DNA of 64,000 bases from Haematococcus lacustris. Its lineage: Eukaryota > Chlorophyta > Chlorophyceae > Chlamydomonadales > Haematococcaceae. This document shows, in pieces, positions 983-61,507 of this stretch. The position numbers and the translations under genes were made by a program. Every line of letters begins with the position of its first letter. Positions within the stretch are counted from its first letter, which is position 1. The notes below the pieces were generated by a model. It worked only from the letters and a program-made list of their open reading frames with translations, did no database searches and was not told where the DNA came from. Location of the stretch: assembly GCA_030144725.1 (NCBI GenBank), contig JASKMD010000015.1, forward strand, positions 8,264,005-8,328,004. Direction: 5' to 3'.

Positions 983-1059
983 TGTCAAACGTTGTGCTTG
1001 TACTGCAGGCTGGGCGAACAGCTTGCACCATGCACTTGCACGCCCAACAAAGATGCAGA

Positions 1060-1345: not shown

Positions 1346-1517
1346 GATTCTAGCTTGGAAGGGGGAGACATCTCGCCATCACGGGGTCGGTGGAATGGAT
1401 GGAGATCCTCTCAGCAATTTAGGCATGGTGGGGATTACTCTGCTTGCCTCCATATCCGATATGAGCAGCTGTTCATCATGGTGACAGGGCTTACAATTAG
1501 ATGAAGACCAAGTGATT

Positions 1518-2840: not shown

Positions 2841-3107
2841 TGCTGTCGGGCGAAAACACGTGGAGCGAGTAGTTAAGATAGCATCACTGATGGCATGAAG
2901 GTGTTTTCATGTAATCACACGCCTAATCTCAGCATTATCTCGTCATTCGGCCCTATTGCGGTGGTGGGGTCGGCTGCATATCTTGCGTGGGCGATCTGTG
3001 TTTTGATGTGCCATATTAAGAGGTTGAGATGTTTGGTGGGCGTGCAAGTGCATGGTGCAAGCGCTCGTCAAGGCTCCCTCCGTGAAGTACAACCCCTACA
3101 ATACACG

Positions 3108-26699: not shown

Positions 26700-29137
26700 G
26701 AGGGTCAAGTGTGGTGCCAGGACCCTGTGGGCCAGGACCCTGTGGTGAGGTGCCAGACCCTGTAGGTGTGCAGCAAGACCCTGAGGTGTGGTGCCAGGAC
26801 CTTGTGGTGCCAGGACCCTGTGGTGAGGGACCAGGACCCTGTGGTGCCAGGACCCTGAGGTGAGGGACCAGGACCCAGTGGTACCAGGACCCTGTGGTGA
26901 GGGACCAGGACCCTGTGGTGCCAGGACCCTGTGGTGAGGGACCAGGACCCTGTGGTGCCAGGACCCTGTGGTGAGAGGCCAGGACCCTGTAGGTGTGCAG
27001 CAGGACCCTGTGGTGAGGAGCCAGGACCCTGTGGTGCCAGGACCCTGTAGCCGTGCGGCAAGACCCTGTAAGCAAATGTCGCAGGACCCTGTAAGCGTGA
27101 GGCAGAACCCTGCAGAAGTGTGTCATAGGACCCTGTAGGCGTGCGGCAGAACCCTGTAGACTAATGTAGCAGGACCCTGTAGGCGTGCGGCAGAACCCTG
27201 TAGTCGTGTGACGCAGGACCCTGTAGGCGTGCGGCAGAACCCTGTAGCCTAATGTCGCAGGACCCTGTAGCCGAGCGGCAGAACCCTGTAGACGTGGGTA
27301 ACAGGACCCTGTAGGCGTGCGGCAGAACCCTGTAGACTAATTCAGCAGGACCCTGTAGGCGTGCGGCAGAACCCTGTAGACTAATGTAGCAGGACCCTGT
27401 AGGCGTGCGGCAGAACCCTGTAGCCTAATGTCGCAGGACCCTGTAGGCGTGCGGCAGAACCCTGTAGACGAAGGTCGCAGGACCCTGTAGCCGAGCGGCA
27501 GAACCCTGTAGACGTTGGTAACAGGACCCTGTAGGCGTGCGGCAGAACCCTGTAGACGAGGGTCGCAGGACCCTGTAGGCGTGCGGCAGAACCCTGTAGA
27601 AGTGTGTCATAGGACCCTGTAGGCGAGCGGCAGAACCCTGTAGACTAATGCAGCAGGACCCTGTAGGCGTGCGGCAGAACCCTGTAGACGAGGGTCGCAG
27701 GGCCCTGTAGCTGTGCGGCAGGACCCTGTAGACCTGTGTCGCAGGACCCTGTAGGCGTGCGGCAGGACCCTGAAGACGTCTGTCGTAGGAAACTGTAGAC
27801 GTGCGACAGGACCCTGTAGACATCTGTCGTAGGACCATGTAGCCGTGCGACAGAACCCTGAGACATATGACTTTGTGGTGTGGTTCATGGACCCTGTGGT
27901 GAGGTGCCAGGACCCGGTGGGCCAGGACCCTGTGGTGAGGTGCCAGGACCCTGTGGTGTGGTGCCAGGACCCAGTGGTATCAGGACCCTGAAGTGTAGTA
28001 CCAGGACCCTGTGGTGAGGTGCCAGGACCCTGTGGTGAGGAGGCAGGACCCTGTGGTGCCAGGACCCTGTGGTGTGGTGCCAGGACCCTGTGTGACAGAA
28101 CCCTGTGGTGAGGTGCCAGGACCCAGTGGTTCCATGACCCTGTGGTGAGGTACCAGGACCCTGTTGACCAGGACCCTGTGGTGTGGTGCCAGGACCCTGT
28201 GGTGAGGTACCAGAACCCTGTGGTGCCAGGACCCTGTGGTGTGGTGCCAGAACCCTGTGTGCCAAGACCCTGTGGTGTGGTGCCAGGACCCTGTGGTGAG
28301 GTGCCAGGACCCGGTGGTGCCAGGACCCTGTGGTGAGGTGCCAGGACCCTGTGTGCCAGGACCCTGTAGGTGTGCAGCAGGACCCTGGAGTGTGGTGCCA
28401 GGACCCTGTGGTGCCAGAACCCTGTGGTGTGGTGCCAGGACCCTGTGAGCCAGGACCCTGTGGTGAGGTGCCAGGACCCTGTAGGTGTGCAGCAGGACCC
28501 TGTGGTGAGGTACCAGGACCCTGTGGTGCCAGGACCCTGTGGTGTGGTGCCAGGACCCTGTGAGCCACAACCCTGTGGTGAGGTGCCAGAACCCTGTGGA
28601 GAAAGACACACATCGTAGGACCCTGTACAGGGTCCAGGCACACATGGTCGAAAGCATCCAAACGGGGTCAACAGGACCAACAACCGGGTATGTAGGAATC
28701 CTAACAGGGTTCTATGACATAGGGATGCAAAGCATGATTGTAATATCAACACTCATAGGGTACACAGGACCCTGTACAGGGTCCTACGACCATGGTGACG
28801 CTAGGACCCGGTGCAGGGTCCTAGGACACGGGCCATAGCTCATTACTGGCTGGGACTTTTTGCATGCCACCTACTAGGTTGGGCAGCTGTAACCACCCTT
28901 TACAACCTCTCATACTCACATTTCATGAAAAGTGACTTTGGTCACACGGTGCCAACTCCCTTAGCCAAAATCAGGGTCTCAGCCCCACACCTGGCCCAGC
29001 AACTCGACACCGAGTGAGAATTACACTTTGGCCCAAGAGAGTCTTGTCATCCGCTAGGTCACAGCAGCCCACATACCAAGTTTCAGACCTCAACTCTCAG
29101 GTTTTTCAAGCCAGCCAGGCCTTAATTTGCACGAGTG
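26700..29137. repeat. T1 right subterminal arrays and terminal region
   Basis: From about 26700 to 27040 and 27880 to 28620 lie GGACCCTGTGGTGAGGTGCC-type units. From about 27040 to 27870 lie GGACCCTGTAGGCGTGCGGC / AGAACCCTGTAGACTAATGT units. Perfect GGACCCTGTACAGGGTCC palindromes follow at about 28618, 28768 and 28800. Positions 28830-29137 are the type b terminal region, an inverted copy of 18543-18860. Confidence 0.9.
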
Positions 29138-29657
29138 CTTGTGGGCCCCGCATCTTGGCCCCTTGCCCCACTCCCTACGTCATCGCCCTAGCAACCTCAA
29201 GGTACTCTGCCTCCGGGAGATGGCTATCCAGCAGGTTGGCAACCTGCCCACCACCTTATCTCTGCTACAGATAGCCCGCCTCATTGCCGTTCTCCCAGCG
29301 CGGGACTTGCCAAGTGTGGCTCGAGGGGTGGAGGCTATCTTTTCAGGGTGCTTCGAGAAGGTGAAGATCGGGCTGTTGGTCCTAATCTTCACATGCAAGG
29401 AGGGTGGAAGCCGTGCCTCCCTGGCACCCCTCATGCCGTTGGTGGGCCAGTTTGGGGAGGCGTTTGTGGAGGTTGATGGGCTCAGTGCACAAGGGCCAGT
29501 GATGGTTGAGAGCTACATTTGCCACCTGCCTCCACTGTTGGCTGGGTGTGCTGGGGTCACGTTCGCCGGGTGCACAAAGCCTCTGTACTGCTGGTCAGAG
29601 GCCCTCTTCAAGCGCAGCCTGGCACCCGGTGGCACTTTGAGCTATCACGCAGAGTGA
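29138..29657 (+). pseudogene. F-box/LRR-like gene C/D, 3' half (split by T1)
   Basis: Family homology starts directly after the T1 terminus and CT duplication. LGPLPHSLRHRPSNLK matches gene A's LGPLPISLRDRPSN, and the following residues track gene A to the window edge. The stop is at 29657 after SYHAE. It has no start of its own apart from a chance ATG inside the T1 end (29127). See the 5' half at 3108-3735. Confidence 0.85.
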
Positions 29658-29884
29658 CATGATGAGTCATGATGAGACAGTTATGCCAGGCAGGGTGACA
29701 CATGGAACACCATTGATGGGGTGCAACGTTGTGATGTGCCATGTACCATGGGGTCGATGTTATGTGTTGCATAGTGACACTTGTAGTAACACTGACAGTG
29801 GACAATGTCGCTTGAGTTGATGTTATTTGTGAAGGCTGCCATGGTCTGATGTCCAGCAAATACATACCAACCCATGCGGCCTTC

Positions 29885-30060
29885 ATATCTGTACAGCTGA
29901 CGAAAAGCCAGTATCTGTTCAAGTGCAGCCTTGATATCTGTTCAGAGTTTGCATCTGTACAGATACGTACTCCCTTATCTGTACAGGTACGAGTGGTGCA
30001 TCTGTACAGATACTGACTCTTTGCTATCTGTACAGATGCCAAGGCTGTATCTGAACAGAC
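29885..30060. repeat. ATCTGTACAGAT cluster upstream of gene E
   Basis: Six or seven copies, several imperfect (TATCTGTTCAAG, CATCTGTACAGAT, TATCTGAACAGA), lie about 70-250 bp before the gene E start. A promoter location is plausible. Confidence 0.8.
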
Positions 30061-30132
30061 AAGCGAAAAGCCCTGTAGGACAGTTAATGTATGCATGCCT
30101 GCGTTATGCTGACTTTGCGCAATCCGTATCAT

Positions 30133-31455
30133 ATGTCGCGCTCAACCCAGTTCAGCGATTTGCCTTGCGGTGCCCTTGCGCACATTGCACGGTTTGCGAC
30201 TGCAGTCCCTGGTGCACGGGGATTTAGCCTGGCTTGCAAGGCCAACCTACATGCCTGTCTAGCCACCTGCCCGAAGCTGGTCCTGCGGCTGGACAGCACA
30301 AAAGTCAGCCGGTTCCTGTCACCAGCTGTCCTCGGGGTCTTGCGAGCAAGGAAGCAGCCGCTACAGCTGCAGCTGCGATGGAACGTGGAGGGGCCGCAGT
30401 ACAACATACCCGACATGCTGCGGTTTGTGATTGGGCTACTGTGGGGCTGCACAGCCGTGAAAGAGGTGGTGATTGACGGCCTCGCAATGGAGCAGGCTGA
30501 GCTGGGTGCCTGGCTAGGAGCCACCTTAGCGGACAGCTTCCCCGAGCTCACCTCACTCACCCTGGCTGGCGACGTGGGCTATGAAGGGCTAGCAGGCCTC
30601 CTGTCCGACCCAGCATTGAAGGCTCAGCTACTACACCTGGACCTCAGCCACGCGTTGCTCTACGGCCATGATGCAGCAGCGTTCTACAAGGCAGCTGCCA
30701 GCCTCCACTCTCTGCACACGGAGCAGATTGACAGCCCTGCAGAGTCCTTGCATGACCTGCCATGTCAGTGGCGCACGCTGCGTGTGTGCAAGGCAAACTT
30801 GGAAGATTTGGACAAGCTGCCTCTGCATGCTGTGAAGGAGGTGGTGCACATTGACCTCCTGGGCGTGTGTGCTAGGGGTTACAGCCTAGATGATATCACA
30901 GCCGGTGCCTCATGCTTTGCAGCGGGTGTGTCTGTCAGGCCTACGGTGGGTACTCTGCGTGTCAACATTGCAGACTCATCTGAGGAGGATCTGTCCGTTC
31001 TGGCCGCGTTGCGACCCCTGGCAGGGTGCGTCCGTGTGGTGCATGTTGTGTGTGGTGATTGGGCATCGGTTGATTCAGAGGCGTTTGATGCTGATGTCAT
31101 GGAGGCCTTGCGCCCTGTGTGCCAAGGCTGCAGTGAGCTGTGGGTCAGGAGGGCCACACTCAAGCCTAGCGTGGAGTTGTGGCACGCCATTGTGGATGGC
31201 GTCCCCTCTATTGCATTTGTCTACATCCACCAATGCTTCCAGTGTGATGAGTTAGTGCTAGAGTCCCTTCAGGAGTTTGTGGAAGAGCATGGTGGTAGGG
31301 ACATCAACATACAAATTGATTACTTCCTACAATCACCTTTGGGGGCCCATGAGGGTTTGGGTGAGAGCGATCTGTCTGATTATGATTTCGGGCCAGTGCG
31401 TGTGTGCGTGGACGAGATGGACTTCTATGACAGCCCATTTGATGGACTTCTATGA
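30133..31455 (+). CDS. F-box/LRR-like protein E
   Basis: An intronless 440-residue frame from ATG 30133 (MSRSTQ), chosen because it aligns with the start of paralogue B (MSHHTQ); an ATG 14 codons upstream is also open. The N-terminal DLPCGALAHIARFAT...FSLACKA is F-box-like. LRR-like leucines follow, then an acidic tail. The last codons are altered by a 25-bp tandem duplication at about 31421-31470 (TTCTATGACAGCCCATTTG occurs twice), so the protein ends FDGLL rather than at the second copy. It is otherwise intact. The SCF adaptor role is inferred. Confidence 0.75.
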   Translation: MSRSTQFSDLPCGALAHIARFATAVPGARGFSLACKANLHACLATCPKLVLRLDSTKVSRFLSPAVLGVLRARKQPLQLQLRWNVEGPQYNIPDMLRFVIGLLWGCTAVKEVVIDGLAMEQAELGAWLGATLADSFPELTSLTLAGDVGYEGLAGLLSDPALKAQLLHLDLSHALLYGHDAAAFYKAAASLHSLHTEQIDSPAESLHDLPCQWRTLRVCKANLEDLDKLPLHAVKEVVHIDLLGVCARGYSLDDITAGASCFAAGVSVRPTVGTLRVNIADSSEEDLSVLAALRPLAGCVRVVHVVCGDWASVDSEAFDADVMEALRPVCQGCSELWVRRATLKPSVELWHAIVDGVPSIAFVYIHQCFQCDELVLESLQEFVEEHGGRDINIQIDYFLQSPLGAHEGLGESDLSDYDFGPVRVCVDEMDFYDSPFDGLL

Positions 31456-31641
31456 CAGCCCATTTGATGCCTTGTAAGATAACTCGGTCTCTGTTCCATG
31501 GTGACCTCACCTCAATGGAAGTCCTCTCACCAACCATGCTGAAATCTATATACCTATGCACAGCTGTCCCTGACAACATCTGTATAGTCAGACTCATGGA
31601 TGTCATCTGTATTTCAGGAAGCAACATTATTACACACTTGG

Positions 31642-33072
31642 TCAGGGCTCGAAATGTTGGGGAGGCCCTGCAACACTCCTTGCCCTCTTGGCGGCCTTCT
31701 CCTGCACCTTTTTCTCAGCCTCAGCCTCAACCTTGGCCTCCCTTGCAGCCGCCTTCGCTATCTGCTTCAACCCTGTAATCAACTGGGTTGGAAGCTCATC
31801 ATCCCACTGCTTCAGATAATGCTTCTCGTGCTCTGCAACAAGGGGTGGTGAGTAGGGTGGCAGTTCCACCATGACGTCCCTAGACACCTCAAACTCCGCT
31901 ACCAATGGCCACCCATGTCGTGGCTTCACTGTGGGCATCACGTTGCTGCAGAACAGCTTGCCCAAGCCATGCACATATGTGGTCTCACCAGGCTTGAATC
32001 CTGGTGATGAATAGAAGTGGATGCGTACACTCATGGTGTTGGCCTGGCCCTCATCCCCCGCATGCAACAAATAACCCCTGATGCATACACACGAGCCTGC
32101 CTCTACCTTCACCCTGTGCACTTTCAAAGGCTTCATACCACCCAACTCTGCCTCATATGCTGCCACCTGTGCTGCAGTGGGGTTCTCGCCAAACACCGCC
32201 TCTGCATGGCGCTCTGCCACCATCACCCAACCCACACTGTCCGGTAGTAGCAACAGGAAAAATGTCTGGATGGCTATGATGAACACCATGCCATCCCTGA
32301 ACCTCTGGATGGCATCAGGGTCGGCATTGGCCGCATCCAACTTGGCCGTCACCTCTGCGCTGTCATTCCTAGGATCTGGCTGCACATCCATGTGTACCAC
32401 TTGGGCTTCCACAGTCCTATATGCTGGAAATGTGCTGTAGTGAAAATTGTTTGCTGTGCCATATGTGACCACCTTCCTCATGTGCCTGAAGTCATTCCCT
32501 ATGATGGTGCCCCCCCTGATGTTTCCACCTGCTACCTCCTCAATGAATGGCATCAACATGCTCAAGTACTTGGAAGCTTCATTTGCAGCCATCTGCACCT
32601 GTCTGGTCAGCTTGTCCACCATGCCACCTGCCTTAGCCTTCATGTCCTCCCACTGCCTGGCTGCCCACGGTGTGCTCAATTCAGCAATCTCTGAGCTGTC
32701 ACTCAGTTTACCTTCAGCATTGGTGGATGTGACTGTCATCTGCAGGCGTTGGCCTGTGCCAAAGTCTGTGCCCAACCAGTCCCCCTGATCCGTTGGGTTG
32801 CCGTGCTCATCAAAGGTGCCCTCCTTGAAGATCACCTTTGCAAACTCTACCACCAAGAACAACAATGCCCACAACAACTTGGGGAACCTGGAGGGCTGCA
32901 GCCGCTCCGGCAGCCGGAACACACCAAACCCCTTCTTCTCTACATGTCTAGCGAATGCAATGCGCTGCTCCTTTGTCTCTACTGCCAGTACCTCTGGCTC
33001 TAACAAGGGGTGAGAGGGTGCAGCCCATACCTCCTTTGGTGTGACTGGGGGAGTGTTGGCCTCAGCCGCAGC
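31642..33072 (-). CDS. 2OG-Fe(II) dioxygenase-like domain exon of T2
   Basis: A single large exon of about 476 codons with its stop at 31642. It has no ATG near its 5' end and begins after a clean acceptor (CACATTGCAG) at 33073, so it is the 3' exon of a longer gene, probably that at 33166-39284. Motifs are GTGQRLQMTV, HMDVQPDPRND (HxD) and LLHAGDEG with a following SVRIHF Arg, consistent with a double-stranded beta-helix dioxygenase retaining Fe and 2OG ligands. A hydrophobic stretch IIAIQTFFLLLLP lies between them. It is a homologue of the C-terminal part of the T1 gene at 16592-26653. The C-terminus is Lys/Glu/Ala-rich and coiled-coil-like. Substrate unknown. Confidence 0.65.
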   Translation of the reverse strand, partial: AAAEANTPPVTPKEVWAAPSHPLLEPEVLAVETKEQRIAFARHVEKKGFGVFRLPERLQPSRFPKLLWALLFLVVEFAKVIFKEGTFDEHGNPTDQGDWLGTDFGTGQRLQMTVTSTNAEGKLSDSSEIAELSTPWAARQWEDMKAKAGGMVDKLTRQVQMAANEASKYLSMLMPFIEEVAGGNIRGGTIIGNDFRHMRKVVTYGTANNFHYSTFPAYRTVEAQVVHMDVQPDPRNDSAEVTAKLDAANADPDAIQRFRDGMVFIIAIQTFFLLLLPDSVGWVMVAERHAEAVFGENPTAAQVAAYEAELGGMKPLKVHRVKVEAGSCVCIRGYLLHAGDEGQANTMSVRIHFYSSPGFKPGETTYVHGLGKLFCSNVMPTVKPRHGWPLVAEFEVSRDVMVELPPYSPPLVAEHEKHYLKQWDDELPTQLITGLKQIAKAAAREAKVEAEAEKKVQEKAAKRARSVAGPPQHFEP

Positions 33073-33165
33073 CTGCAATGTGGGGTGGGATGGCAATAAG
33101 TGGAATTGGTGGTGGTGGTCATGATCTATCCTTGTCTATCCTATGCCCCATATGCTGAGCCTCAC

Positions 33166-36100
33166 CTCTTTACTGGACCGCACGCGTGTGGTTCGCCCCT
33201 TCACAGACTTATCAGCAGGGTTGAGCGTAGCCTTTGCCTACACAACAATCCAAGCACCATCGACATGGGCGATGATCAACGCATGCACCACATATGCTTG
33301 ACACATCAACGCAGCACACCCATGCCTCTTCTCACTTGACGAATAGAACCCTACGAGGCCTTTTCTGGCTCGGCACCTCTTGTGTATAGTTGTCTCTTTC
33401 ATCGCACCTGGGAGGCCACAGCTGCGCCTCTCCGTGGCCTGCCACTGGCCTGGCTCTGGATCTGCATCATGGAAGCACGCATGGCATGTGTTTGGCAATC
33501 TGTTTGTCAGGGGCATGGGTGTGCCATGTTGAACCCTCTCACCACCTCAGCCTGTGTATCCATGGTGTCCGCCTCCTCTTCCTCCATGGAGCTTCCGTCT
33601 CCGCCTGTGCCCCTGCCCCTGCCCTTGCGGCTGCCCTTGCGGCTGCCCCTGCCCCTGCCCCTGCCCCTGCCCCTGCCCTTGCCCCTGCCCCTGCCCATGT
33701 CCTGCGCCACCTTCACCGCCTTTGCTTTTGTCGGCTCCTGCGTGGGCAATGTGTACATGTCGTAGGGGTGCAACATGCGTCCGAGCCTAAGCTACCAGCC
33801 CAGTAGTGCACCATGCCCATATCGTTTGTGTGGCTCACCTCATGCGCCAGCTCCTCAGAAACCGTGAGCTCCGAATCGTCAGCTGTCGCCGGCTTGGGTG
33901 GCAGTGCCTGCAATGCCTGACAGCGACGTTTTGATGTCAGCCACAAATGACATATACAAGGGTGGCTCACCTCGTCATCGTAGTCAACAAGCGACCCAAA
34001 GTATCCAGTGCCAGCGATGGCAGGGTGGCATGGCTTCTGCAAGTCCAGTGATTGACAAAACATACAAGTCATGGATGGCAACCCCGTTACGCTGTGCAGT
34101 ATCTGATGCCACTACCTACCTCCCCTGCGCTGGGCGCCTGGAGCTGTTCACCCTGCTCCCTTGGGCGCTTCAGCGGGTTGTCAAGCTGGCTGCAAGGGAT
34201 GGGTGCAGCGTCCTGGCTACAAGGAATGGGGGCAGCCTCCTGGGAGCGTCATCAAGGGAGTGGCAGGGGGCAGGGAGTGGCAGGGGGTAAGGCTCACATG
34301 TTGCGGTGCGTGGTGTTACTGAGTTTTGTGTCTGCATGCCTGACATGCATTGCATATGAAGTGACATACCCCATCATCTTGGCTGCATGCGCCACCCGCC
34401 TGCTTTTCCTTCTCGGCAATGGCCTGGTCCCACATCTTCTGCTGCTGCATCCCAGGATAGTCAGATATGCACTAGCAGTCAGATATGCACCATCAGTTAT
34501 GGGTGCGCTGACTGTATACAGTTTGTGTTGCAAGGAGCCATTGCTGCACCCACCTCCTCCGTGATCAAGCCCTGTTCAGCAAAGGTCTTGGCGCGGGGAA
34601 ACGCCTGCTGTTCCTCCTTAGTGGAAAAGAAATCCACCACCTGTATGCAAACAGATATCAAGTATTCGGAGCACGTTGCCAGACTCCCTACAGCCTAGAT
34701 GTCCGTCTCCTTACTTTGCTCCATGGCATAGCCCTCGGCTGTTCTGGGCTGAGGTCTTGTTGGGTGTCTGGGATAGTCATGACATGGTCGAGGCTGGTCT
34801 CTTCCTGCATCCCAGGTTCAAGTACTAGGTGGCTGCATTAGCAGCTGTAGCCTTAGCAGAATTAAAGTTGCAGGGTGTGTTTGGGCATAGCCCTGCCGGC
34901 CACACCCACCTCTTCTGTGACTAAGTCAACCTCTGATGCGTCAGGGTCCGGTACATTAGGCAGGGGTGGGGGCACAGATGCCAAGTCAGGTTTGAATTCT
35001 AGGGGGGGGGTCACCTGCACACAGATGTTGGGAGGTATTTGCAGTAAGACTTCGGAGGGACATGCTGAGGTTGAACTCATGTTGTGGGCTATAACCACAC
35101 AGCTTCAAGACAGCACTCCACTCACCAGCGTATTCCAGCCCGACGCAGCACGCAGCGTCCTCAACAACCTAGGCCTCACGGACACGACATCCGCTTCCCT
35201 GATGGTCAAGTCAGTGAGAAAAGCGGGCCCCCTACATGCGCATGCATCACGTCTTGCATGACTGTATGGGGACAACATGCAACCATCTGCCCTATGCGGT
35301 GCCACGTACCTGGTCTTGCTGAGGGTGATGCACAGCTGCTCCATGGCCAGGATCACCCTGTCACCACAGGAGATACAATCTTGCTGCTGAGCCACAGTGC
35401 CTCTGAGGTACTCCCAATCGCTGCCACCATAGACAGCTGTGCACCAGTCTTGGAGGCGCTTCCAGCGCCAGGCGAGCATACCACCATTGGCCTGCAAAAC
35501 AAGGGGCTGCCATGCTGATGTTGCGGTTGGGCTGTGCGTGACAGTATGATTGTACATGCAAGCTCAGTGGTCCCACCTGCATGGAGTCATACAACACCAA
35601 GGTCCTCAGTCTGGGGTAGACCACCACCAGCACCCAGTGCTTGTTGCTGATGTTCAGCGGCAACAGCACTGTGCTGGCATCAGACAACCGAAGGAACCCC
35701 CTGGCATGGTAATAAGGGTTATCAGGTTTATTCAGCTTGCTGTAGTCAACAGCCCGCTTGTCGTCCCTGAATAGGTCACAGGACGTCCATGGATAGCAAA
35801 TCAAGAATGACTTGCTCTCACCGTACTCAACCTGCAAGGCCAACATCACATTACAGCGATGGAGCCCCAGTGCCTGGCACAAATATGCATGCCCACCACC
35901 AGTCTGCCCTACCGTCATACGGATAGCAGCAGCCGTAATCTCATGAGTGGAGAGATATTGTGGGTCAGGCGCATCTGGTGATAGACGCTTAAACAGGTTT
36001 GCGTCACATGGGTCGGCCAGGCGTAAAACCTGCATGTATGGCATCACCAAGATGCAGCAGCTATCACACAAATGCATAAATACACAAATGTACAAAAGCA

Positions 36101-39100
36101 CAAATGCACATGCAACAGCTCCCACCCGACCACCTACCTTCACTTAGACACCCACCTCGTCTGCGTTAAATGGTACAGAGTCGTCCACACCTCTGACTGG
36201 CCCAGCCACCAGCAGCCCAGCCTGGTGCAGATCTGTCGTGGTTATTGCAGCAGCGGTGGCCCAGTTGGCCGCATTAACCACCATCTGACACAGTTGCTCT
36301 GCCTTCACACCTGAAATGTTACGTATTGCATGAACATGCGCATATGTGTATCTGCGTCTATGTGTGCGTGTGAATAAATGACATGCCATAACACAGGGGC
36401 ATCACCTGATGGTGTTGATGCAGGAGCTGGCGCCTCTGCCCCAGCCTCCGCCACCGCCACAGCCCCTGCCCCTGCCCCTGCCCCTGCCCCTGCCCCTGCC
36501 CCTGCCCCTGCCCCTGCCCCTACCCCTACCCCTGACCCTGACCCTCCCCTTGCCCCTGCACTTGCTCTTGCTGCTGACCCTACCCCTAACCCAGCCATCA
36601 CCCCTCCCCCAGCACCCACCCTCGCTGCTGCCCCTGCCCCAGCACCCACCCTCGCTGCTGCCCCTGCCCCAGCACCCACCCTCGCTGCTGCCCCTGCCCC
36701 TGGCCTGGTCTTTGCTAAAGCCCTGGCCTGCCTTGCTGCTAAACGGCCTTCCAGCCTCGCCAATCTCTCTGCTGTCCCTGCAGCTCCCTCATCTGCTGCC
36801 TCATCTGCTGCCTCATCTCCAGATCCCTCGTCTGCTGCCTGATCTGCTGCAGGGCGTGAGGGTGCGGTAGCTGTTGATGGTGTAGCTACTGCTGCTGCTG
36901 CTGTGAGTAGCGGTGCTGGTGAAGGCAGGGGTGATACTGCTGATGGAGCCGCTGCTGCTAGTGATGCTGCGGGCGGTGAGGGTGCTGCTGCTGCTGCTGA
37001 TGTTGCTTTGGGGGCTGCTGGTGCCCCTGACCTCGCTGCTCCAGGTGAGGGAGCTGATACGGCTGCCGCATATGTTGCAGGTGGTGAGCGGGAAGAGGCT
37101 GGTACACGGGTGGGGGATGCTGACGCTGTCGCTGGGTGGGGTGGAGGGGGTGGCGGAAGTGGGGCTGCTGCTGGCGGTACCTCTGCCACCCTTGGCGCGG
37201 ACAGGGTAGAAGCTGCTGCCTCAGCGCAACCCCTGGATGCTGCCTTCAGTGATGCCTCGCAGCGCTTTGTATCAGGGCTCAGAATATCGTTCATCTGCAA
37301 CACCGCATGCAGTACATGCTCATGAATCAGGTGACTGCTGTGCATTTGATGACTCATGTCTAAAACGACGCTGTAAGATGCAACCCCAGGTGTTTACCTC
37401 CTCAGCCAGCTCCCGCAGATCCACCTCCCCATCGCATAGGCGCGTGCCATCTGCACGACCTAGGACCATGTAATGATTGTTATTTATTAGGAGCATGTAC
37501 ATGGCCTCACCCTCCAGGCCAGGCTTGTAACCTGGTGGCCTGCAACTGGCCACCTGCTCAGGAGACAGTCCAAACCGATGCGTGAAGCCCTGGGTATACC
37601 AGGGCCGTTTACTGCTAGGATCCTTATCCAGCAGGTACAGAGGTATGCCTCTGAGCAGGCTGTAAAGCGCCAGGACATTGGGGTGCGTCCATGCACTCAG
37701 TTTAGCAAGGTGGGCAGGATACCACAGGCCCAATGGTATCGGCTCTGTCTGGTTATGAGGTAGGACAGACATGAGCGGGGGCAGGTCAGGCGGGACCTGG
37801 TTTGCTGCCACCAACTTCTGATACAATTGCACCAGGTTCTCAGCGAAATGCGCCGTTGCCTCACGCTCTTCAGCATGTGCCTGTTAGCAAACCACAAATG
37901 CAGTGTAACATGACGCAATGTCACATAGGTGCCAATCAGCACACTGACGTGCGACAACATTGTGAAAGCAGGACATGTGCAAATCGAGACATTACCATAT
38001 CAGCCCATCAGCAAATCTTCATTGCCTAACCTGTGATGTAGTCACTCACCTGTGGGTGGTAGGTGCCTTGCCACACGCATGAGGCGTGGAAGAAGCAGTT
38101 CCCGTCGCCGAGCACGTTGTACAGGCTGAGCCCCTTCTTGGCCAAGTGCCTGATAGGGATGGCACGGACGTGTTCGTAGGCCAGCCCCACAGGAGACCAC
38201 AAATTAGGCCTGCGAGGCTGCTGCGGGTGAGGCTGCTGGGGGCGAGGCTGCTGGGGGCGAGGCTGCTGGGGGTGAGGACGCTGGGGGCGAGACTGCTGCG
38301 AGAGAGGCTGCTGCTGGTGTGGTGGCTGTAGGAGAGGCTGTTGAAGGAGGATGGGGGCATGCAGGGATGGAGATTGGGGGCTGGGCGCTCGCTTGCTGGT
38401 AGGTGACTGAGCAGGTGAGCTACGGGCTGTGGGCATGCAAGGGGGACTAAGAGTGGTTGTGGGCAGGCGAGGGGGACTGGGAGGGGCTGCGGACAGGCGA
38501 GGGGGACTGGGAGGGGCTGTGGGCAGGCGAGGGGGGCTGGGAGGGGCTGTGGGCAGGCGAGAGGGACTGGGAGGGGCTGTGGGCAGGCGAGGGGCGCAGG
38601 GTCCTGCAGGGGTTTTGGGGCTAGTGGTAGGGGCGGGTGCAGGCAGGTGTGCCAAATGCGCTTTGGGAGCCTGGATGGGTGAACGCCGCTGAGTGTATGT
38701 AGCCATGCACTGTTTGGCCTCATTCAACAAGCGCATGACCCGCTGGCCATCAGGGGTATTCAACAGGGGCATGGTCGTGCCATCCTTGTCTGCAAGGCAG
38801 TAAATCATGTTATAAAAACAATGCATAGCGATAACCGGTGCCATGGACAGTTTGGACTCACAATTGGCATAGGTCCTGTACAGCCTGATGAGCGGCATCA
38901 CAGCCATCCTGCGGTCTTCGACTAGTGGAGCTCCATCATCAGGTAGCTGAGCCCTGCGTGTGTTCATGGGCCTCTCTAGTCATCTAGGCCAGTAATGGAC
39001 CAGCCCGCAGTGGACGCATGAACTCACTCCTGGATCCACAGCCGCAACTGCTGTAAGGTCCACCCTTTCTTCAGCTTCACTTCTTTTTTCGCCACAGCCT

Positions 39101-39284
39101 TCAGGATAAGGGCCCCCATCAGGGCCTGGGATTCAGTATCCCATTCCCCCTGCAAGGCAACCGCCATCACTCCTGATGTCTCCCATGTTGAACAGACACG
39201 AGAGCTCGCATCACACACGTAGCGATACCCAGGTCGCCACATAGCCTGGATGAAGGCGATGACATCTGTCTGCGGCTTGTTCAT
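33166..39284 (-). CDS. OTU + Ulp1/C48 protease gene of T2 (likely fused to 31642-33072)
   Basis: ATG 39284 (MNKPQTDVIAFIQ). Exon 3 (about 38050-38791) has a Pro/Ser/Gln-rich repeat then SLYNVLGDGNCFFHAS, the OTU DGxC motif. The exon at about 37398-37880 has INNNHYMVL, the OTU catalytic-His region. An Ala-rich linker (36406-37295) follows. The exon at about 35577-36032 has SNKHWVLVVV...VLYDSMQ, and 35310-35492 has QQQDCISCGD: the H-D-Q-C set of Ulp1/C48 SUMO or ubiquitin-like proteases. Downstream exons are basic and RGRG-rich (about 33600-33680). Phase-0 exons at 33408-33461 and 33166-33237 lead straight to the phase-0 acceptor of the dioxygenase exon. OTU enzymes cut ubiquitin and Ulp1 enzymes cut SUMO-like tags; the activity here is predicted from motifs. 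Exon boundaries are approximate. Confidence 0.65.
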
Positions 39285-39389: not shown

Positions 39390-39745
39390 CCATCATCTGT
39401 ACAGATAGCAGCTTCAGGCATCTGTACAGATGCCTAGCTCTATATCTGTACAGATTCATATCCCATCTGTACAGATAGCAGCCTAAGGCATCTGTACAGA
39501 TGCCCACTTCACTATCTGTTCAGATGCTATGGTATATCTGTACAGATAGGACTTGCCTCATCTGTACAGATACCAGCCTGAGGTATTTGTACAGATGCCC
39601 ACTCAACAATCTGTACAGATGCGTTAAGCGGCTATCTGTACAGATAAGACATGTCTTATCTGTACAGATATACTATAGCATCTGAACAGATAGTGAAGTG
39701 GGCATCTGTAAAGATGCCTTAGGCTGCTATCTGTACAGATGCACC
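39390..39745. promoter_or_regulatory. ATCTGTACAGAT array between divergent T2 genes
   Basis: About fifteen palindromes, mostly perfect and spaced about 22-25 bp apart, lie between the protease gene start (39284, minus) and the small gene start (39851, plus). The placement suits a shared promoter or transposase-binding region. Confidence 0.75.
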
Positions 39746-39850
39746 ACCCGACGCCTATGTCGATCCATCCTTTGAGATTCACACCAACAGCCACCATAGC
39801 ACAGCACAGCACGACACAGTTCACGACCACGCGAACACCCGTCGATAGAC

Positions 39851-40186
39851 ATGAGCAGCGACATGTCCAGCGAAAACAGCGCTACATCTCCATACAGGCC
39901 CCTGTTACCTGACATACAGAGTGGGCCAACATTGCCAGAGGAGCTGAACTCGCGTGTAGCGCGCGAGGCTTACAAAAGGAACAAGCACATAATGTGGAGG
40001 CCGGGACAGAATTGCCGGACATTGTTGCACTTGATCAAGAGCGGCGAATGGGATTGGGCTATGAGTGGCGTGACGGTGGATGAATCGAGGGGGGCCAATG
40101 TTGCCCCAGGGGCGACAGTACCTACATCGGCCGGCATGTCTAATGTGACATCAGAGAACTCAACACAACAATCAGTTGTATCCTAG
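39851..40186 (+). CDS. Small T2 ORF, unknown
   Basis: A single-exon 111-residue frame beginning MSSDMSSENSATSPY and ending TSENSTQQSVVS. A central segment reads IMWRPGQNCRTLLHLI. The MWRPG motif also occurs near the N-terminus of the protease gene (AMWRPGYRY), which hints at a shared short domain. No known family recognised. Confidence 0.4.
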   Translation: MSSDMSSENSATSPYRPLLPDIQSGPTLPEELNSRVAREAYKRNKHIMWRPGQNCRTLLHLIKSGEWDWAMSGVTVDESRGANVAPGATVPTSAGMSNVTSENSTQQSVVS

Positions 40187-40341: not shown

Positions 40342-42555
40342 CACTCCTACAATTTAAGCCCTGCGTTTTTCCCTGCGCTTTGGCCGACCTTGTCCAAATG
40401 GGCTGAAACTTGGCACGTTGGTAGCTTGTAATGTAAGGAATCCATCCCAAAAGAAGTCAGGTCAAAAAAATCAAAGGCTAAGGCTCGGCGGCCCGTGGCG
40501 TTCAGGCAGGGACGGATGCAGGGATTGAGGGGGGGGCGCAGGGACAAACGCAGGGATGGAAGGGGGGGTGCAGGGACGAACGCAGGGATGAGCGCAGGGA
40601 AGAGCGCAGGGATTATGGGCGCAGGGATGAGCGCAGGGATTAACGCAGGGACGAGCGCAGGGATTATGGGCGCAGGGATGAGCGCAGGGATAAACGCAGG
40701 GACGAGCGCAGGGATTAACGCAGGGACGAGCGCAGGGATTATGGGCGCAGGGACGAGCGCAGGGATTAACGCAGGGACGAGCGCAGGGATTATGGGCGCA
40801 GGGACGAGCGCAGGGATTAACGCAGGGATTATCGCAGGGATTAACGCAGGGATTAACGCAGGGATTAACGCAGGGATTATCGCAGGGATTAACGCAGGGA
40901 TTAACGCAGGGATTAACGCAGGGATTAACGCAGGGATTAACGCAGGGATTAACGCAGGGATTAACGCAGGGATTATCGCAGGGATTAACGCAGGGATTAT
41001 CGCAGGGATTAACGCAGGGATTAACGCAGGGATTAACGCAGGGATTAACGCAGGGATTAACGCAGGGATTAACGCAGGGATTAACGCAGGGATTAACGCA
41101 GGGATTAACGCAGGGATTAACGCAGGGATTAACGCAGGGATTAACGCAGGGATTAACGCAGGGATTAACGCGCGGATTAACGCAGGGATTAACGCAGGGA
41201 TTAACGCAGGGATTAACGCAGGGATTAACGCAGGGATTAACGCAGGGATTAACGCAGGGATTAACGCAGGGATTAACGTAGGGCTCGAGTGCAGGGACGG
41301 ACGCAGGGCTCGAGTGCAGGGACGGACGCAGGGACGGATGCAGGGGCAGACGCAGGGATTGTAGGAACGTGCATGATGCTTACAGCAGTGTCTAACACAA
41401 GCACAAATAACCTTCTCCGTGTTTGCTACATCCAACTACATACATCACATCCATCTACTGCGATCATTTAGGCTGGAGTCTGGCTGCTGCATGTCAGCTG
41501 GCTCCTGCCTGTAAGCTGGCTGCCACCAAGCTGCTACGGCCTCTTGGCTGCTGATCCTGGCTTGCACCACTGCTCCATTGCCACACCACTGCCAAGAGGC
41601 TGCTGCACCCCTGCACAACAACAACATGCACACAAGGGGACATGTGCACAAGAGCTGTCACCTTACTGATGAAGGACGCACCCACGACGTTCATCTGCAA
41701 TCAGGCAGGCAACACAGATGTGGTGGAACGTGACGCTATATAGATGAAGCGCGACTGGTGCTGCGTGACTGCTACCACGAAAACGGCGGTTGCACCGCAC
41801 TGCGACATCGCACCTGGCATAGTGTACGAGTGCAGTCCGGATCCTGCAAGCCTGCGAGCGTGCAAGCCGGCAAACCTGCAAGCCACGAGGCGGCAAGACA
41901 CATCGCACATCGCTCAATTGCCAGCCGAAGCCACCTACCACCACTAGCGTGCAACGGGCCCTCCTCTGTGGCAGCCACCAGCCAGGCCTTGTCGGTGCAC
42001 CTTCATTCCTCGTACTAAGGCCAATCTTGACGCAAGCCTTTGCCAATACATCGCAGTACGTTCCCGACAAGGCCTAGCACAGTCTGGATAAGCGCTATCT
42101 TGGTTAGTGAACTTTCAAAGTTAGTGAATCGCGAAGCTTGCGAGTGACGAAGTTTGCGTGTTGTAGAGCAGTTCTAACGGCGGCATCGTTCATCCCTTAG
42201 GATACAAGGCAGCACACATATTGCTTCCCCAAGCGGGATCAGGCGACGAGAAACTGGCAAGGCCTGGCTGGTGGCTGCCACAGAGGAGGGCCCGTTGCAC
42301 GCTAGTGGTGGTAAGTGGCTTCGGCTGGCTTCGGCTGGCTTCCCTGCGTTTGTCCCTGCGCCCCCCCCTCAATCCCTGCATCCGTCCCTGCGTGAACGCC
42401 ACGGGCCGCCGAGCCTTAGCCTTTGATTTTTTTGACCTGATTTCTTTTGGGATGGATTCCTAACATCACTAGCTACCAACGTGCCAAGTTTCAGCCCATT
42501 TGGACAAGGTCGGCCAAAGCGCAGGGAAAAACGCAGGGCTTAAATTGTAGGAGTG
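40342..42555. mobile_element. Foldback element copy 2 (complete ends)
   Basis: Left end CACTCCTACAATTTAAGCCC at 40342; right end is its inverse ending GAGTG at 42555. Flanks are TC on both sides. The left arm carries the 12-bp minisatellite and sequence shared with copy 1. The right arm (about 42070-42555) is an inverted copy of parts of the left arm with the minisatellite nearly lost. It encodes nothing convincing and sits between two convergent T2 genes. Confidence 0.85.
40500..41282. repeat. 12-bp minisatellite GCAGGGATTAAC
   Basis: About 60 units, the later half almost homogeneous. Both strands are open (INAG on plus, IPAL on minus) because the unit length is a multiple of three. Copy 1 at 19145-19770 has fewer and more varied units. 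Confidence 0.9.
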
Positions 42556-42645: not shown

Positions 42646-44586
42646 TCATGGGCCAGTGGCACCATCACCGGCAACCATATCCTCTTCTTCCTGCAAGGCC
42701 TTCATCTGCGCCTCATACGCTGCTTTTGCTTTAGCCATCTCAGCAGCTATCTTGGCGCGTTTGGCTTCCGGTGTCTCAGGTACTAGGGTTGCTGCTGCCT
42801 CTGCTGCCGCTGCTGCTGCCTCTGCTGCCGCTGCTGCTGCCTCTGCAGCAATCCTTGCCTCCTCGGCAGCAGCGGCAGCTGCCTGTTGGCGTTGAAGCTC
42901 CTCATAGTCATGAGCACTCTGGGCTTCCTCAAATGACACGTTGAAGGTCTTGGTGAACTCCAGGATGGCAGCCTACAGTCGATTGCAGACGATTAACGCC
43001 AAGATGTTGGAATTGGGCTAACGATAAATAAGTCAAGCACGCATGGAATGGCTCACGTCTTACATCAGGTCATGGCTGGTTGAAACGAGAAATGCACAGT
43101 GACCATCACCTGTGTGGTGATACAAGGCTCTGATGCTGCATCAAAGAACTGCGATGCACCACCATAACGCACCTCCTGTGGAGACGTGATTCATCAGGTT
43201 TGTATGATAGGCCAGAGCATGACCAAGAACGCATGAACCATACATGCAGTGATGCCATAACCCGGGTGTGTAGGACTCACCCGGTTGGCGAGTAAGTCAG
43301 CATCAATAGTGTCTCGCAATTGGGACGGCTGCAAATGCGACAGTGTAGAAGACATGCACACATCGTTCAAGGCCCTTGGCAACACAGGGTACAATGACCA
43401 TCATGATGCACGTGCAACACATAAGCACACCTTCAGGGTGATGGCCTTGTCCGCCACAAGCAGTTGGAACCCTTCGTCAATGTGCTTGGCCATGGCATCG
43501 GTCACAAACAGTGACTTCACAGTGAAGTACTGTGGGTCAGGTAGGATGCCTACAGGCAAAGACACCGTGAAACAGTCTTCAAATATGAGCACCAGCGGTA
43601 CCACTATAAGAACCAACATCAATGTATGCATGAGCAACTACATGCTTACCCTCCTTGAACTTCAAGGCCAGGGCAATGAGCTTCTCCCAGCTGCTTGGCC
43701 GCTTTCCAGCAGTGAAGAACTTGCCCCACACGCGGTCCCACTGAGAGTACTTGTCTTCATTTTCCTTTTTCACTGAGGATGGTGCTGCTTCATTGGAGCT
43801 GCGTGTCTTCTTGCTCACGGTGTTATGACCACACCTGACCCAACAAGCGAGCAACATGCACACAAATAGACAACAGCTCATCGTGTTTCAAGGAAGCAGC
43901 CACCTTACTTGTGGATTTTAACCACGATGTCGTCGTACTTGAGGTCCTTAGACACATACCCCAGGGTATCCAGCAGCCCCATGAGGACAGCACCGACAAT
44001 GGCGTCGGTAGCATCCTGCCATCTGGCATATTTGCACCCCGTCACCTGGGCACCATGACAATCAGCGCACACACTAGGTAAGAGGAGGGATGAAAGCCTA
44101 TGCAGGCAGGGATGCAGCACTAACCCCGTCGGTCTTTCGCCCTGCCAGTAGCATCACGTAGTGTGCAATGAGCACTGTAACCACGCTGTCCGTGACGTCA
44201 TGGGCGGTGATGGGCACTTCGGGTGCAAACCACTCATCAACCACTTCCCTGTCAGAGGTGAGCACCGTGCCCTGCACATCAGACATAACCTTATTGACCT
44301 ATTGTACATCCGCACTATATGACCTGTGGGTGCATGTTAAGAAGACTCACAACACTGCCACTGGCGCCAGGGGAAGAGCAAGTAGCCGGCGCAACCAGGC
44401 GCCTGGATTTCTGCACGAACAGTAGCATGCCAGATGAGAAGCACGCTGGCGACTAACAATAGCCATGCAACGCACCGGAAGCTCACGACTCTTAAACGCG
44501 GGGGTAGAGCCTGTGTCACTATCGGACAAAGACCTGGAATGCTTGGTGCCAGCTTTCTTGTCAGACCCGGTTTGCTTTGGGGGCAT
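42646..44586 (-). CDS. T2 accessory gene (TNPA-like by position)
   Basis: ATG 44586 (MPPKQTGSDKKAGTKHS). Exons include 44476-44586, 44351-44410, about 44125-44277 (VVTVLIAHYVMLLAGRKTDG), about 43915-44045, about 43650-43830 (KENEDKYSQWDRVWGKFF), about 43440-43600, about 43280-43375, then a last exon to 42646 that is Ala/Glu-rich and probably coiled-coil. No known family recognised. It is head-to-head with the transposase, as in T1, and like the T1 accessory protein it starts basic and ends in an Ala-rich tail. A role as the transposon's DNA-binding partner is inferred. Confidence 0.55.
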
Positions 44587-49994: not shown

Positions 49995-50947
49995 TGCAAC
50001 AAGCATCTGTACAGATTGTGAATGCGCGTCTGTACAGATTAGACAGATTTGCATCTGTACAGATATCAAAGTTGCATCTGTACAGATAGCCGCGAAGCAT
50101 CTGTACAGATACAAATAGGGTATCTGTACAGATAGGTGAAAATCATCTGTACAGATAGGAGCAAGACGTCTGTACAGATAGCAGCAAGGCATCTGTACAG
50201 ATAGCAGCAAGGCATCTGTACAGATAGCAGCGAGGCGTCTGTACAGATAGAAGCAATGCGTCTGTACGGATAGCAGCAACGCATCTGTACAGATAGGAGC
50301 AAGGCGTCTGTACAGATAGGAGCAATGCGTCTGTACAGATAGGAGAAAGGCGTCTGTACAGATAACAGCAAGGCATCTGTACAGATAGCAACGAGGCATC
50401 TGTACAGATAAAAGTGAATTATCTGTACAGATAGCAACAAAATGTCTGTACAGATAGCAGCAAATCGTCTGTACAGATAGCAAAGTGACATCTGTACAGA
50501 CAAAAGCAAGGCATCTGTACAGATAGTAGCAAAGTATCTGTACAGATATGAGCAAGGCATCTGTACAGATAAAATCAAGGCATCTGAACAGATAGGAGCG
50601 AAGCATCTGTACAGATAAAAGCGAAGTATCTGTACAGATAGCATTAAATGTCTGTACAGATAACAGCAAGTTATCTGTACAGATAACATCAAAGCATCTG
50701 TACAGATACATGCGAGACATCTGTACAGATAAGAAAGAGGCATCTGTACAGATAGGTACAGGGCGTCTGTACAGATATGTGGCAAATAGACATCTGTACA
50801 GATAGTATGCATGCATCTGTACAGATAACTTAAAGGCGCATCTGTACAGATTATTAAGAAGCTATCTGTACAGATGCTGATGACAATCTGTACAGATAGC
50901 TTTGCAGACATCTGTACAGATAGTTACTTAGCAAATCTGTACAGATA
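49995..50947. repeat. T2 right subterminal ATCTGTACAGAT array
   Basis: Over 40 copies of CATCTGTACAGATAG-like units at about 22-bp spacing. Most are perfect 12-bp palindromes with 8-12 bp purine-rich spacers. It ends about 145 bp before the proposed T2 terminus. Confidence 0.9.
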
Positions 50948-51230
50948 CGTGGTTGAGAAATTCGCGGTCCAACTACGTCGCAACGGATGCACGGATTAGC
51001 GTAAGACTTGTACCGTTCGAACGGCCTTCTACTCTAGTTTTCATAGAGCTATGGTCGGTCCAATCGCGACCGGTCCTTGTTTATCGTGAGTGTGCTGCCG
51101 CTACTGCCCCCCTTCCCCCCTGCTGCTGCTGCTGCTGCCCCCCTTCCCCCCTGCTGCTGCTGCTGATGCTGCCCCGCTGCCCCCCTGCTGCTGCTGCTGC
51201 TGGCCCCCTGCCCCAAGCTCCTGCGGTCAG

Positions 51231-51612
51231 CCAGTACTGGTTGGGGGCCAGCCAATACTGGTCGGGGGCCAGCCAGTACTGGTTGGGGGCCAGCCAGTAC
51301 TGGTTGGGGGCCAGCCAGTACTGGTTGGGGGCCAGCCAGTACTGGTTGGGGGCCAGCCAGTACTGGTTGGGGGCCAGCCAGTACTGGTTGGGGGCCAGCC
51401 AGTACTGGTTGGGGGCCAGCCAGTACTGGTTGGGGGTCAGCCAGTACTGGTTGGGTGTGAACCAGTACTGGTTTGGGGTAAACCAGTACTGGTTTGGGGT
51501 AAACCAGTACTGGTTTGGGGTAAACTGGAGGTGGACCAGTATTGGTTGCGGGGCGGCCAGTACTGGTTGGGGGTGGACCAGTACTGGTTGGGGGTGGACC
51601 AGTACTGGTTTT
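51231..51612. repeat. 21-bp minisatellite (CCAGTACTGGTTGGGGGCCAG)
   Basis: About 18 units containing the palindrome CCAGTACTGG, more diverged towards the right. It would translate as repeated ASQYWLG, but no gene context supports this. A CTG-rich tract precedes it (51093-51230). Confidence 0.9.
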
Positions 51613-61007: not shown

Positions 61008-61507
61008 NNNNNNNNNNNNNNNNNNNNNNNNNNNNNNNNNNNNNNNNNNNNNNNNNNNNNNNNNNNNNNNNNNNNNNNNNNNNNNNNNNNNNNNNNNNNN
61101 NNNNNNNNNNNNNNNNNNNNNNNNNNNNNNNNNNNNNNNNNNNNNNNNNNNNNNNNNNNNNNNNNNNNNNNNNNNNNNNNNNNNNNNNNNNNNNNNNNNN
61201 NNNNNNNNNNNNNNNNNNNNNNNNNNNNNNNNNNNNNNNNNNNNNNNNNNNNNNNNNNNNNNNNNNNNNNNNNNNNNNNNNNNNNNNNNNNNNNNNNNNN
61301 NNNNNNNNNNNNNNNNNNNNNNNNNNNNNNNNNNNNNNNNNNNNNNNNNNNNNNNNNNNNNNNNNNNNNNNNNNNNNNNNNNNNNNNNNNNNNNNNNNNN
61401 NNNNNNNNNNNNNNNNNNNNNNNNNNNNNNNNNNNNNNNNNNNNNNNNNNNNNNNNNNNNNNNNNNNNNNNNNNNNNNNNNNNNNNNNNNNNNNNNNNNN
61501 NNNNNNN
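61008..61507. other. Assembly gap (500 N)
   Basis: Exactly 500 N, probably a placeholder length. Frames drawn across it are meaningless. Confidence 0.99.

What the first reader, a model, noticed from the sequence alone, without database searches (positions are those of the whole stretch)
31642..39284. Transposon gene joining OTU, Ulp1 and dioxygenase domains
The minus-strand exons with OTU (DGNC, HYMV) and Ulp1 (HW, YDS, QQQDC) motifs run, with phase-0 exons at 33408-33461 and 33166-33237, into a dioxygenase exon that lacks its own ATG and starts at a phase-0 acceptor. That predicts one polyprotein-like product with two different deconjugating proteases and an oxygenase. Ulp1 capture is known in plant transposons; this three-way fusion is, to my knowledge, not described.
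Basis: partly seen in the sequence, partly recalled or inferred. Interest (0 to 1): 0.9.

Follow-up and report, generated by a model that had tools for sequence, protein, structure and literature searches.

The report
Transposon protein fusing two proteases, oxygenase
A repeated and likely mobile element of a green alga (likely Haematococcus) carries a gene predicted to make one protein that joins an OTU-like protease, a Ulp1-type protease and an oxygenase-like domain, a combination that would likely help a jumping gene resist its host's silencing on several fronts.

Summary
On the minus strand, 39284-31642 reads as a 21-exon gene with GT-AG introns and one open frame of 1,879 residues: N-terminal region, OTU-like domain, Ulp1 domain, linker of short exons, and a dioxygenase-like exon without its own ATG at its start. 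Ulp1 passes its Pfam cut-off (1.9e-7). OTU rests on motifs and a partial profile match to OTUD3 (2.7e-4). The dioxygenase is tied to PhyH-type 2OG oxygenases only through a second, stand-alone copy in the window. All 17 database relatives found are Haematococcus lacustris. Four carry Ulp1 joined to the linker and dioxygenase exon, with at least part of the OTU; Ulp1 and dioxygenase types are reshuffled while their order stays. Linker exons are in-frame coding. Against this, 0 of 7 V8C86DRAFT models contain OTU or Ulp1 motifs, three of them start in exon 18, and the QJQ45 annotation merges neighbouring genes. No transcript was seen. I judge one gene about 0.8 likely. Ten paper searches did not turn up the three-way combination; OTU, Ulp1 and dioxygenase capture by transposons are each known. 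New variant of a known kind.

The parts
39395..39740 (.). Array of 12-bp palindromes ATCTGTACAGAT, likely control region of the gene
   Evidence: 15 copies with at most 1 mismatch, about 110 bp upstream of ATG 39284
39028..39284 (-). Exon 1, ATG, N-terminal region
   Evidence: relative P0014 aligns here at 92%
38862..38953 (-). Exon 2, N-terminal region
38050..38789 (-). Exon 3, Pro/Gln-rich spacer and OTU N half with GDGNC
37398..37880 (-). Exon 4, OTU C half with NNNHYM
36406..37294 (-). Exon 5, Ala/Gly-rich spacer
   Evidence: coding score near zero
36156..36310 (-). Exon 6, start of Ulp1 region
35913..36029 (-). Exon 7, Ulp1 region
35577..35831 (-). Exon 8, Ulp1 with KHW and YDS
35310..35491 (-). 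Exon 9, Ulp1 with QQQDCISCG
35126..35231 (-). Exon 10, end of Ulp1 region
34910..35014 (-). Exon 11, linker
34715..34804 (-). Exon 12, linker
34554..34640 (-). Exon 13, linker
   Evidence: 90% to P0011 and P0014
34370..34444 (-). Exon 14, linker
34120..34239 (-). Exon 15, linker with basic stretch KRPRE (possible nuclear signal)
   Evidence: LKRPR in 6 of 17 relatives
33971..34036 (-). Exon 16, linker
33839..33907 (-). Exon 17, linker
33543..33737 (-). Exon 18, RG-repeat linker; holds in-frame Met 33587, at or just before which three V8C86DRAFT models begin
33408..33461 (-). Exon 19, linker, phase 0
   Evidence: its residues are present in the P0002, P0005 and P0006 models; neutral coding score
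33166..33237 (-). Exon 20, linker, phase 0
31642..33072 (-). Exon 21, divergent 2OG-Fe(II) dioxygenase-like domain, no own ATG at its start
31630..31634 (-). TGTAA, 7 nt after the stop codon; likely polyadenylation signal
   Evidence: role of the motif recalled
42646..44586 (-). Gene A, upstream neighbour with its own stop; merged with the OTU gene in P0011 and P0014
44606..49785 (+). Possible transposase gene (Cys-rich motifs, related gene in sister element); start and splicing by eye, superfamily not assigned
   Evidence: no Pfam match to a transposase
30088..31455 (+). Leucine-rich-looking gene LRR2, convergent with the fusion gene
   Evidence: no credible Pfam or PDB match
29887..30037 (.). 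Palindrome array upstream of LRR2
50005..50946 (.). Long palindrome array beyond the possible transposase gene, likely near one end of the element

Best explanation
A 21-exon minus-strand gene (39284-31642) in a multi-copy, likely mobile element of a green alga (likely Haematococcus) is predicted to encode one 1,879-residue protein joining an OTU-like protease, a Ulp1 protease domain and a divergent dioxygenase-like domain, which would likely strip ubiquitin and SUMO from silencing factors and oxidise a repressive mark so that the element can be expressed and move. Shown by sequence: the open frame, the domain motifs, the conserved linker, the same order in relatives. Inferred: single transcript, nuclear action, all catalytic activities, and the anti-silencing role. 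I put the one-gene architecture at about 0.8 and the anti-silencing role at about 0.4.
For: Open spliced frame. Ulp1 Pfam 1.9e-7 across the joined exons. OTU profile to OTUD3 2.7e-4 with GDGNC aligned. Dioxygenase linked by hhalign to the window's second copy (exon 25931-26650: prob 96.2, pairwise E 2.1e-9, 188 columns; unrelated control prob 1.7), which itself hits PhyH at 2.8e-6. Linker exons coding in frame. Among 17 relatives, 4 join Ulp1 to the linker and dioxygenase exon with at least part of the OTU (P0011; P0013, whose model lacks GDGNC; P0014, dioxygenase cut short; P0017, OTU C half and no Ulp1 Cys stretch); P0012 joins the Ulp1 end to the dioxygenase and P0015 joins OTU, linker and dioxygenase. 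Both Ulp1 types occur with both main dioxygenase types (window a-1, P0011 b-1, P0013 b-2, P0017 a-2). TGTAA follows the dioxygenase stop by 7 nt and is absent between Ulp1 and dioxygenase. A palindrome array lies before the OTU exons and none before the dioxygenase exon, whereas the stand-alone copy has an array (24653-25019) upstream of it.
Against: No cDNA or read was seen. 0 of 7 V8C86DRAFT models carry OTU or Ulp1 motifs, and P0002, P0005 and P0016 begin in exon 18; if these are the JGI strain Liv1 models, as I infer, that annotation used Iso-Seq and Trinity transcripts. The QJQ45 annotation merges neighbours: gene A in P0011 and P0014, LRR genes in P0009, P0012 and P0013, a retrotransposon in P0012. 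Only 1 of 17 relatives (P0011) has all three motif sets intact. The dioxygenase exon has no Pfam or NCBIfam match and no credible PDB match, and its predicted fold is unusable (pLDDT 31). Absence of TGTAA over about 2 kb is weak, since it occurs only 6 times in 13 kb of that strand.
Confidence: 0.55

Rival explanations
1. Two adjacent genes: an OTU-Ulp1 gene and a separate dioxygenase gene that starts at Met 33587 in exon 18 (or Met 34435 or 34780 further up); database fusions are merging errors.
For: P0002, P0005 and P0016 start at or just before this Met; the other annotation demonstrably merges neighbours; the sister copy of the dioxygenase looks stand-alone.
Against: Exons 11-18 upstream of that Met are coding in frame and are conserved as protein in divergent relatives; no gene-end signal or palindrome array between Ulp1 and dioxygenase. 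The OTU search (proteins of 455-1,447 aa) gave no V8C86DRAFT OTU-Ulp1 protein, but it also missed P0015, which lies in that range, so this is weak.
Confidence: 0.17
2. One gene, but the product aids the transposition reaction itself (removing ubiquitin or SUMO from the transposase or repair factors) rather than countering silencing; the dioxygenase acts on a protein or small molecule.
For: A part in transposition was proposed for OTU and Ulp1 domains of Ginger1 transposases (PMC2836005, passages); PhyH enzymes mostly act on small molecules (recalled).
Against: Nothing here separates it from the anti-silencing role; a separate possible transposase gene exists in the element.
Confidence: 0.3
3. 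The window copy is an unexpressed relic, kept open by recent copying, and has no function.
For: Several relatives are truncated: 6 of 17 lack the HxD or the LLHAG motif (P0005, P0006, P0007, P0009, P0010, P0014), though model errors can do the same; a 2.2-kb insertion sits between gene A and the fusion gene.
Against: All motif sets and the 1,879-codon frame are intact in the window; the dioxygenase motifs are kept in relatives only 60-70% identical to it (P0004, P0013, P0015, P0016, P0017).
Confidence: 0.15

Closest known systems
Ginger1 DNA transposons with OTU or Ulp1 domain (PMC2836005, passages read)
   Same: Transposon-encoded OTU or Ulp1 protease domains
   Different: There one or the other sits at the C-terminus of the transposase; here both sit in one protein apart from the possible transposase, and a dioxygenase-like domain follows
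Mutator-type elements with Ulp1 domains (as cited in a passage of PMC2836005)
   Same: Ulp1 domain carried by DNA transposons, plants included
   Different: No OTU or dioxygenase mentioned for them in the passage read
Fungal DNA transposons with TET/JBP dioxygenase (PMC12730594, abstract and first part of the discussion read)
   Same: 2OG dioxygenase carried by many DNA transposon lineages, thought to counter silencing
   Different: Different dioxygenase branch (no Tet_JBP match here, nearest link PhyH); the words Ulp1 and OTU do not occur in that main text
Stand-alone PhyH-type gene of the sister element, window about 25445-26653
   Same: Homologous dioxygenase in a neighbouring gene set with related palindrome arrays
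   Different: No protease exons seen next to it; an array lies upstream
Hypothetical proteins QJQ45_002750, QJQ45_022611, QJQ45_002767, QJQ45_002718 of H. lacustris
   Same: Same domain order; P0011 covers 100% of residues 820-1879 at 63% identity
   Different: No function named; several merged with neighbours or truncated

Membership tests
Ulp1 / Peptidase C48 | Pfam PF02902 above its cut-off | tested here: met
   31.6 bits, cut-off 20.7, E 1.9e-7
Ulp1 / Peptidase C48 | His, Asp, Gln, Cys catalytic set in order | tested here: met
   KHW, YDS, QQQDCISCG; His, Asp, Gln and Cys invariant with P0011; the set itself is recalled
Ulp1 / Peptidase C48 | SUMO or ubiquitin-like cleavage activity | not testable with these tools
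   needs assay
OTU cysteine protease | Profile match to OTU proteins | tested here: inconclusive
   PDB OTUD3 2.7e-4 over profile positions 16-61 of 214 only; Pfam Peptidase_C65 in 2 of 4 members, best 0.12, below cut-off
OTU cysteine protease | DGNC and downstream NxH | tested here: met
   GDGNC and NNNHY in the window, P0011, P0014; GDGNC and NDNHY in P0015; GDGNC missing from P0013 and P0017 models; motif recalled
2OG-Fe(II) dioxygenase, PhyH branch | PF05721 match | tested here: not met
   No Pfam match for the exon itself; match only for the homologous sister copy
2OG-Fe(II) dioxygenase, PhyH branch | HxD...H...R | tested here: met
   HMD, GYLLHAG, SVRIHFY aligned to HTD, VHAG, CARLYGF of the sister copy
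TET/JBP dioxygenase | Pfam Tet_JBP match | tested here: not met
   no Pfam match
CACTA/EnSpm, Plavaka or KDZ DNA transposon | recognised transposase | tested here: not met
   no Pfam match to a transposase for the window or sister gene pieces; the CACTA-like look is recalled, not tested
CACTA/EnSpm, Plavaka or KDZ DNA transposon | terminal inverted repeats and target duplication | tested here: inconclusive
   only low-complexity matches for the stretch beyond the right-hand array; left end unresolved

The most novel reading that the evidence does not exclude
A transposon evolved a single anti-silencing enzyme that removes ubiquitin, removes SUMO and oxidises a repressive mark, recombining interchangeable protease and oxygenase modules between copies, and places this gene and others of the element under arrays of one palindromic operator read by a protein of the element.
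Probability: 0.25. Interest if true: 0.85.

Novelty: new variant of a known kind. Interest (0 to 1): 0.62.

Why it matters
Transposons are known to carry ubiquitin or SUMO proteases and, separately, DNA-oxidising dioxygenases. One protein with both would suggest that these tools act together on the same target, and would give a compact test of how host silencing is undone. The reshuffled modules in one algal genome offer natural variants, and Haematococcus is an industrial species for which RNA-seq and Iso-Seq data have been made.

Tried and rejected
Dioxygenase as TET/JBP: no Pfam match; replaced by a PhyH link through the sister copy. AlphaFold2 of the dioxygenase with 8 rows: pLDDT 31, discarded, no fold search run. 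The second fold job was not used, because the alignments are just as shallow. Viral relatives of dioxygenase and OTU: none. Phage records: none. Solved structures for the dioxygenase, LRR2 and the sister copy: nothing credible. Transposase naming by Pfam or NCBIfam: failed. Terminal repeats of the element: only low-complexity hits. Self-cleavage after the GG in exon 18 (polyprotein idea): a GG before DGSSMEEEE is seen in the window, P0012 and P0014 but not in P0013, P0016 or P0017, so not pursued. hhalign of A2 with the OTU piece is no control, because A2 contains P0015 with its own OTU; one search is the valid negative control. hhalign E-values are pairwise, not for a database. dN/dS of the linker could not be done: DNA of relatives was not obtained.

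An error of mine: the sister dioxygenase typed began with 12 residues of a guessed leader exon whose frame does not join the next exon (seen). The link was therefore repeated with the window's own exon alone, and the PhyH match cited is that; both hold. The start of that sister gene is unknown; 25445 is the first in-frame Met after an acceptor.

Paper searches did not turn up this three-way combination. Searches asked for OTU with Ulp1: 0 papers with all four terms, 4 papers, and 41 papers with three terms of which 8 were listed. PMC3482391 (polymorphic toxins) holds all four terms and was seen as a listing only. The library holds open-licence papers only. Read: PMC12730594 abstract and discussion part 1; PMC8226300 two passages; PMC2836005 passages; PMC10400597 sections 5 and 6 and passages; PMC12613990 whole text; others as listing.
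Full report
What is there. The minus strand from 39284 to 31642 reads as a 21-exon gene. Joining the exons gives 1,879 residues and a terminal stop; introns are 63-170 nt and GT-AG. The order is: N-terminal region (aa 1-about 150), Pro/Gln-rich spacer, OTU-like domain (about 310-524), Ala/Gly-rich spacer, Ulp1 domain (821-1092), a linker of ten short exons all divisible by three (1093-1403), and a 476-residue dioxygenase-like exon.

Domains. Peptidase_C48 matches at 1.9e-7 once exons are joined, and the match then covers the His, Asp and Cys motifs. The OTU part has no Pfam match above cut-off, but a four-member profile hits OTUD3 at 2.7e-4 with GDGNC aligned, over profile positions 16-61 of 214, and P0015 keeps GDGNC and NDNH at 41% identity. 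The dioxygenase part has no direct family match. It aligns with a second gene in the window (plus strand, about 25445-26653): with the exon 25931-26650 alone, prob 96.2, pairwise E 2.1e-9, 188 columns, 28% identity, including HxD, H and R (unrelated control prob 1.7). That exon matches PhyH at 2.8e-6. So it is likely a divergent 2OG-Fe(II) dioxygenase, not a TET/JBP enzyme.

Is it one gene? For: the ten linker exons together score +100.5 bits in frame and negative in both other frames (311 codons; exon 19 neutral; the training set excluded these exons; background was out-of-frame codons plus the gene's own introns). Relatives align to the linker exons at or near the same borders, and a stretch with DNPLKRPR or HNPLKRPR recurs in divergent relatives. 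Of 17 relatives, 4 join Ulp1 to the linker and dioxygenase exon together with all or part of the OTU (P0011, P0013, P0014, P0017; the dioxygenase of P0014 is cut short, the model of P0013 lacks GDGNC, and that of P0017 has only the OTU C half and lacks the Ulp1 Cys stretch); P0012 and P0015 join two of the parts; the other 11 of 17 (P0001-P0010, P0016) have only dioxygenase pieces, some with linker exons or merged neighbours. There are two Ulp1 types (window and P0017 79% alike; P0011, P0013, P0014 93-95% alike; 39-43% between types) and two main dioxygenase types, and all four pairings occur in the same order. A TGTAA lies 7 nt after the dioxygenase stop and another 17 nt after the LRR2 stop; none lies between Ulp1 and dioxygenase. 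Of five gene ends looked at, three have TGTAA within about 200 nt (fusion gene, LRR2, possible transposase) and two do not (gene A; sister dioxygenase, seen to 26800 only). That TGTAA is the algal polyadenylation signal is recalled.

Against: the seven V8C86DRAFT models (P0002, P0004-P0007, P0010, P0016) contain no OTU or Ulp1 motif, and three begin at or just before the exon 18 Met. I infer that they are the JGI models of strain Liv1, annotated with Iso-Seq and Trinity transcripts (PMC12613990); the paper text does not give the tag. The QJQ45 models come from the SAG 192.80 assembly, since the contig lengths of P0001, P0003, P0008, P0009 and P0012-P0015 equal chromosome lengths in its Table 2, and were built from homology to eight species plus RNA-seq; P0011 and P0017 lie on smaller contigs. 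They merge neighbours, so a fused model alone proves little. The searches were limited by length (262-833, 1,033-3,288 and 455-1,447 aa), the first two scored only the roughly 8,000 candidates sharing most words, and the third missed P0015, a known relative in its range. No transcript was examined.

Setting. Copies or pieces lie on at least seven chromosomes (2, 12, 23, 25, 26, 27, 31) plus smaller contigs, which fits a dispersed repeat. Around the gene are gene A (44586-42646, minus, ends in its own stop), a possible transposase gene (about 44606-49785, plus) with a related gene in a sister set (29% over 228 aligned positions), and a leucine-rich-looking gene (30088-31455, plus). Arrays of the palindrome ATCTGTACAGAT (70 matches with at most one mismatch in the window against 0.1 expected) lie about 110 bp before the fusion gene's ATG, just before LRR1 (first Met 982) and LRR2 (first Met 30091), and beyond the possible transposase gene at 50005-50946. 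The sister set carries arrays with the related core CTGTACAG, one of them (24653-25019) upstream of its stand-alone dioxygenase. That these arrays are control sites bound by an element protein is inference. Element ends were not found.

Mechanism. From the parts, the likeliest reading is a protein that would remove ubiquitin and SUMO from host factors on the element and oxidise a repressive mark, in the way proposed for dioxygenases of fungal TET/JBP transposons (PMC12730594). The alternative, help with the transposition reaction itself, as proposed for Ginger1 proteases (PMC2836005), is not excluded.

Novelty. OTU or Ulp1 in transposons and dioxygenases in transposons are each known. Both proteases plus a dioxygenase in one protein did not turn up in ten paper searches of an open-licence library. 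The architecture already exists, without a named function, in hypothetical proteins.

Noticed in passing
window 40342-42555 and 18986 to at least 20585: A 2.2-kb insertion with 215-bp, 98% inverted ends beginning CACTCCTACAA sits between gene A and the fusion gene; a second copy starts at about 18986. Looks like a non-autonomous DNA transposon; TC on both flanks is a possible 2-bp target duplication.
   Followed up: partly
window 3885-28600: A second set of genes with palindromic arrays (AGGACCCTGTACAGGGTCC type), a related possible transposase gene on the minus strand near 8847-5023 and a stand-alone PhyH-type gene at about 25445-26653.
   Followed up: partly
window 1-3830 and 29112-31455: Several leucine-rich-looking genes; 1523-2828 and 31447-30145 are 78.6% identical. 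An F-box-like start is seen by eye only, with no family match.
   Followed up: partly
window 39800-40186 (+): Small open frame (ATG 39851) whose start faces the array on the side opposite to the fusion gene, so the array could serve two divergent genes.
   Followed up: no
window 46084-46355: Array of about 46 CCCTAG-type units inside what looks like an intron of the possible transposase gene.
   Followed up: no
window 51228-51610: Another palindromic array (CCAGTACTGG core, 21-bp units) just beyond the right-hand ATCTGTACAGAT array.
   Followed up: no
window 54476-55679, 61919-62780 and 61008-61507: Perfect or near-perfect CGCCC (241 copies) and GGGTC (173 copies) arrays; 500 bases of N lie at 61008-61507.
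   Followed up: no
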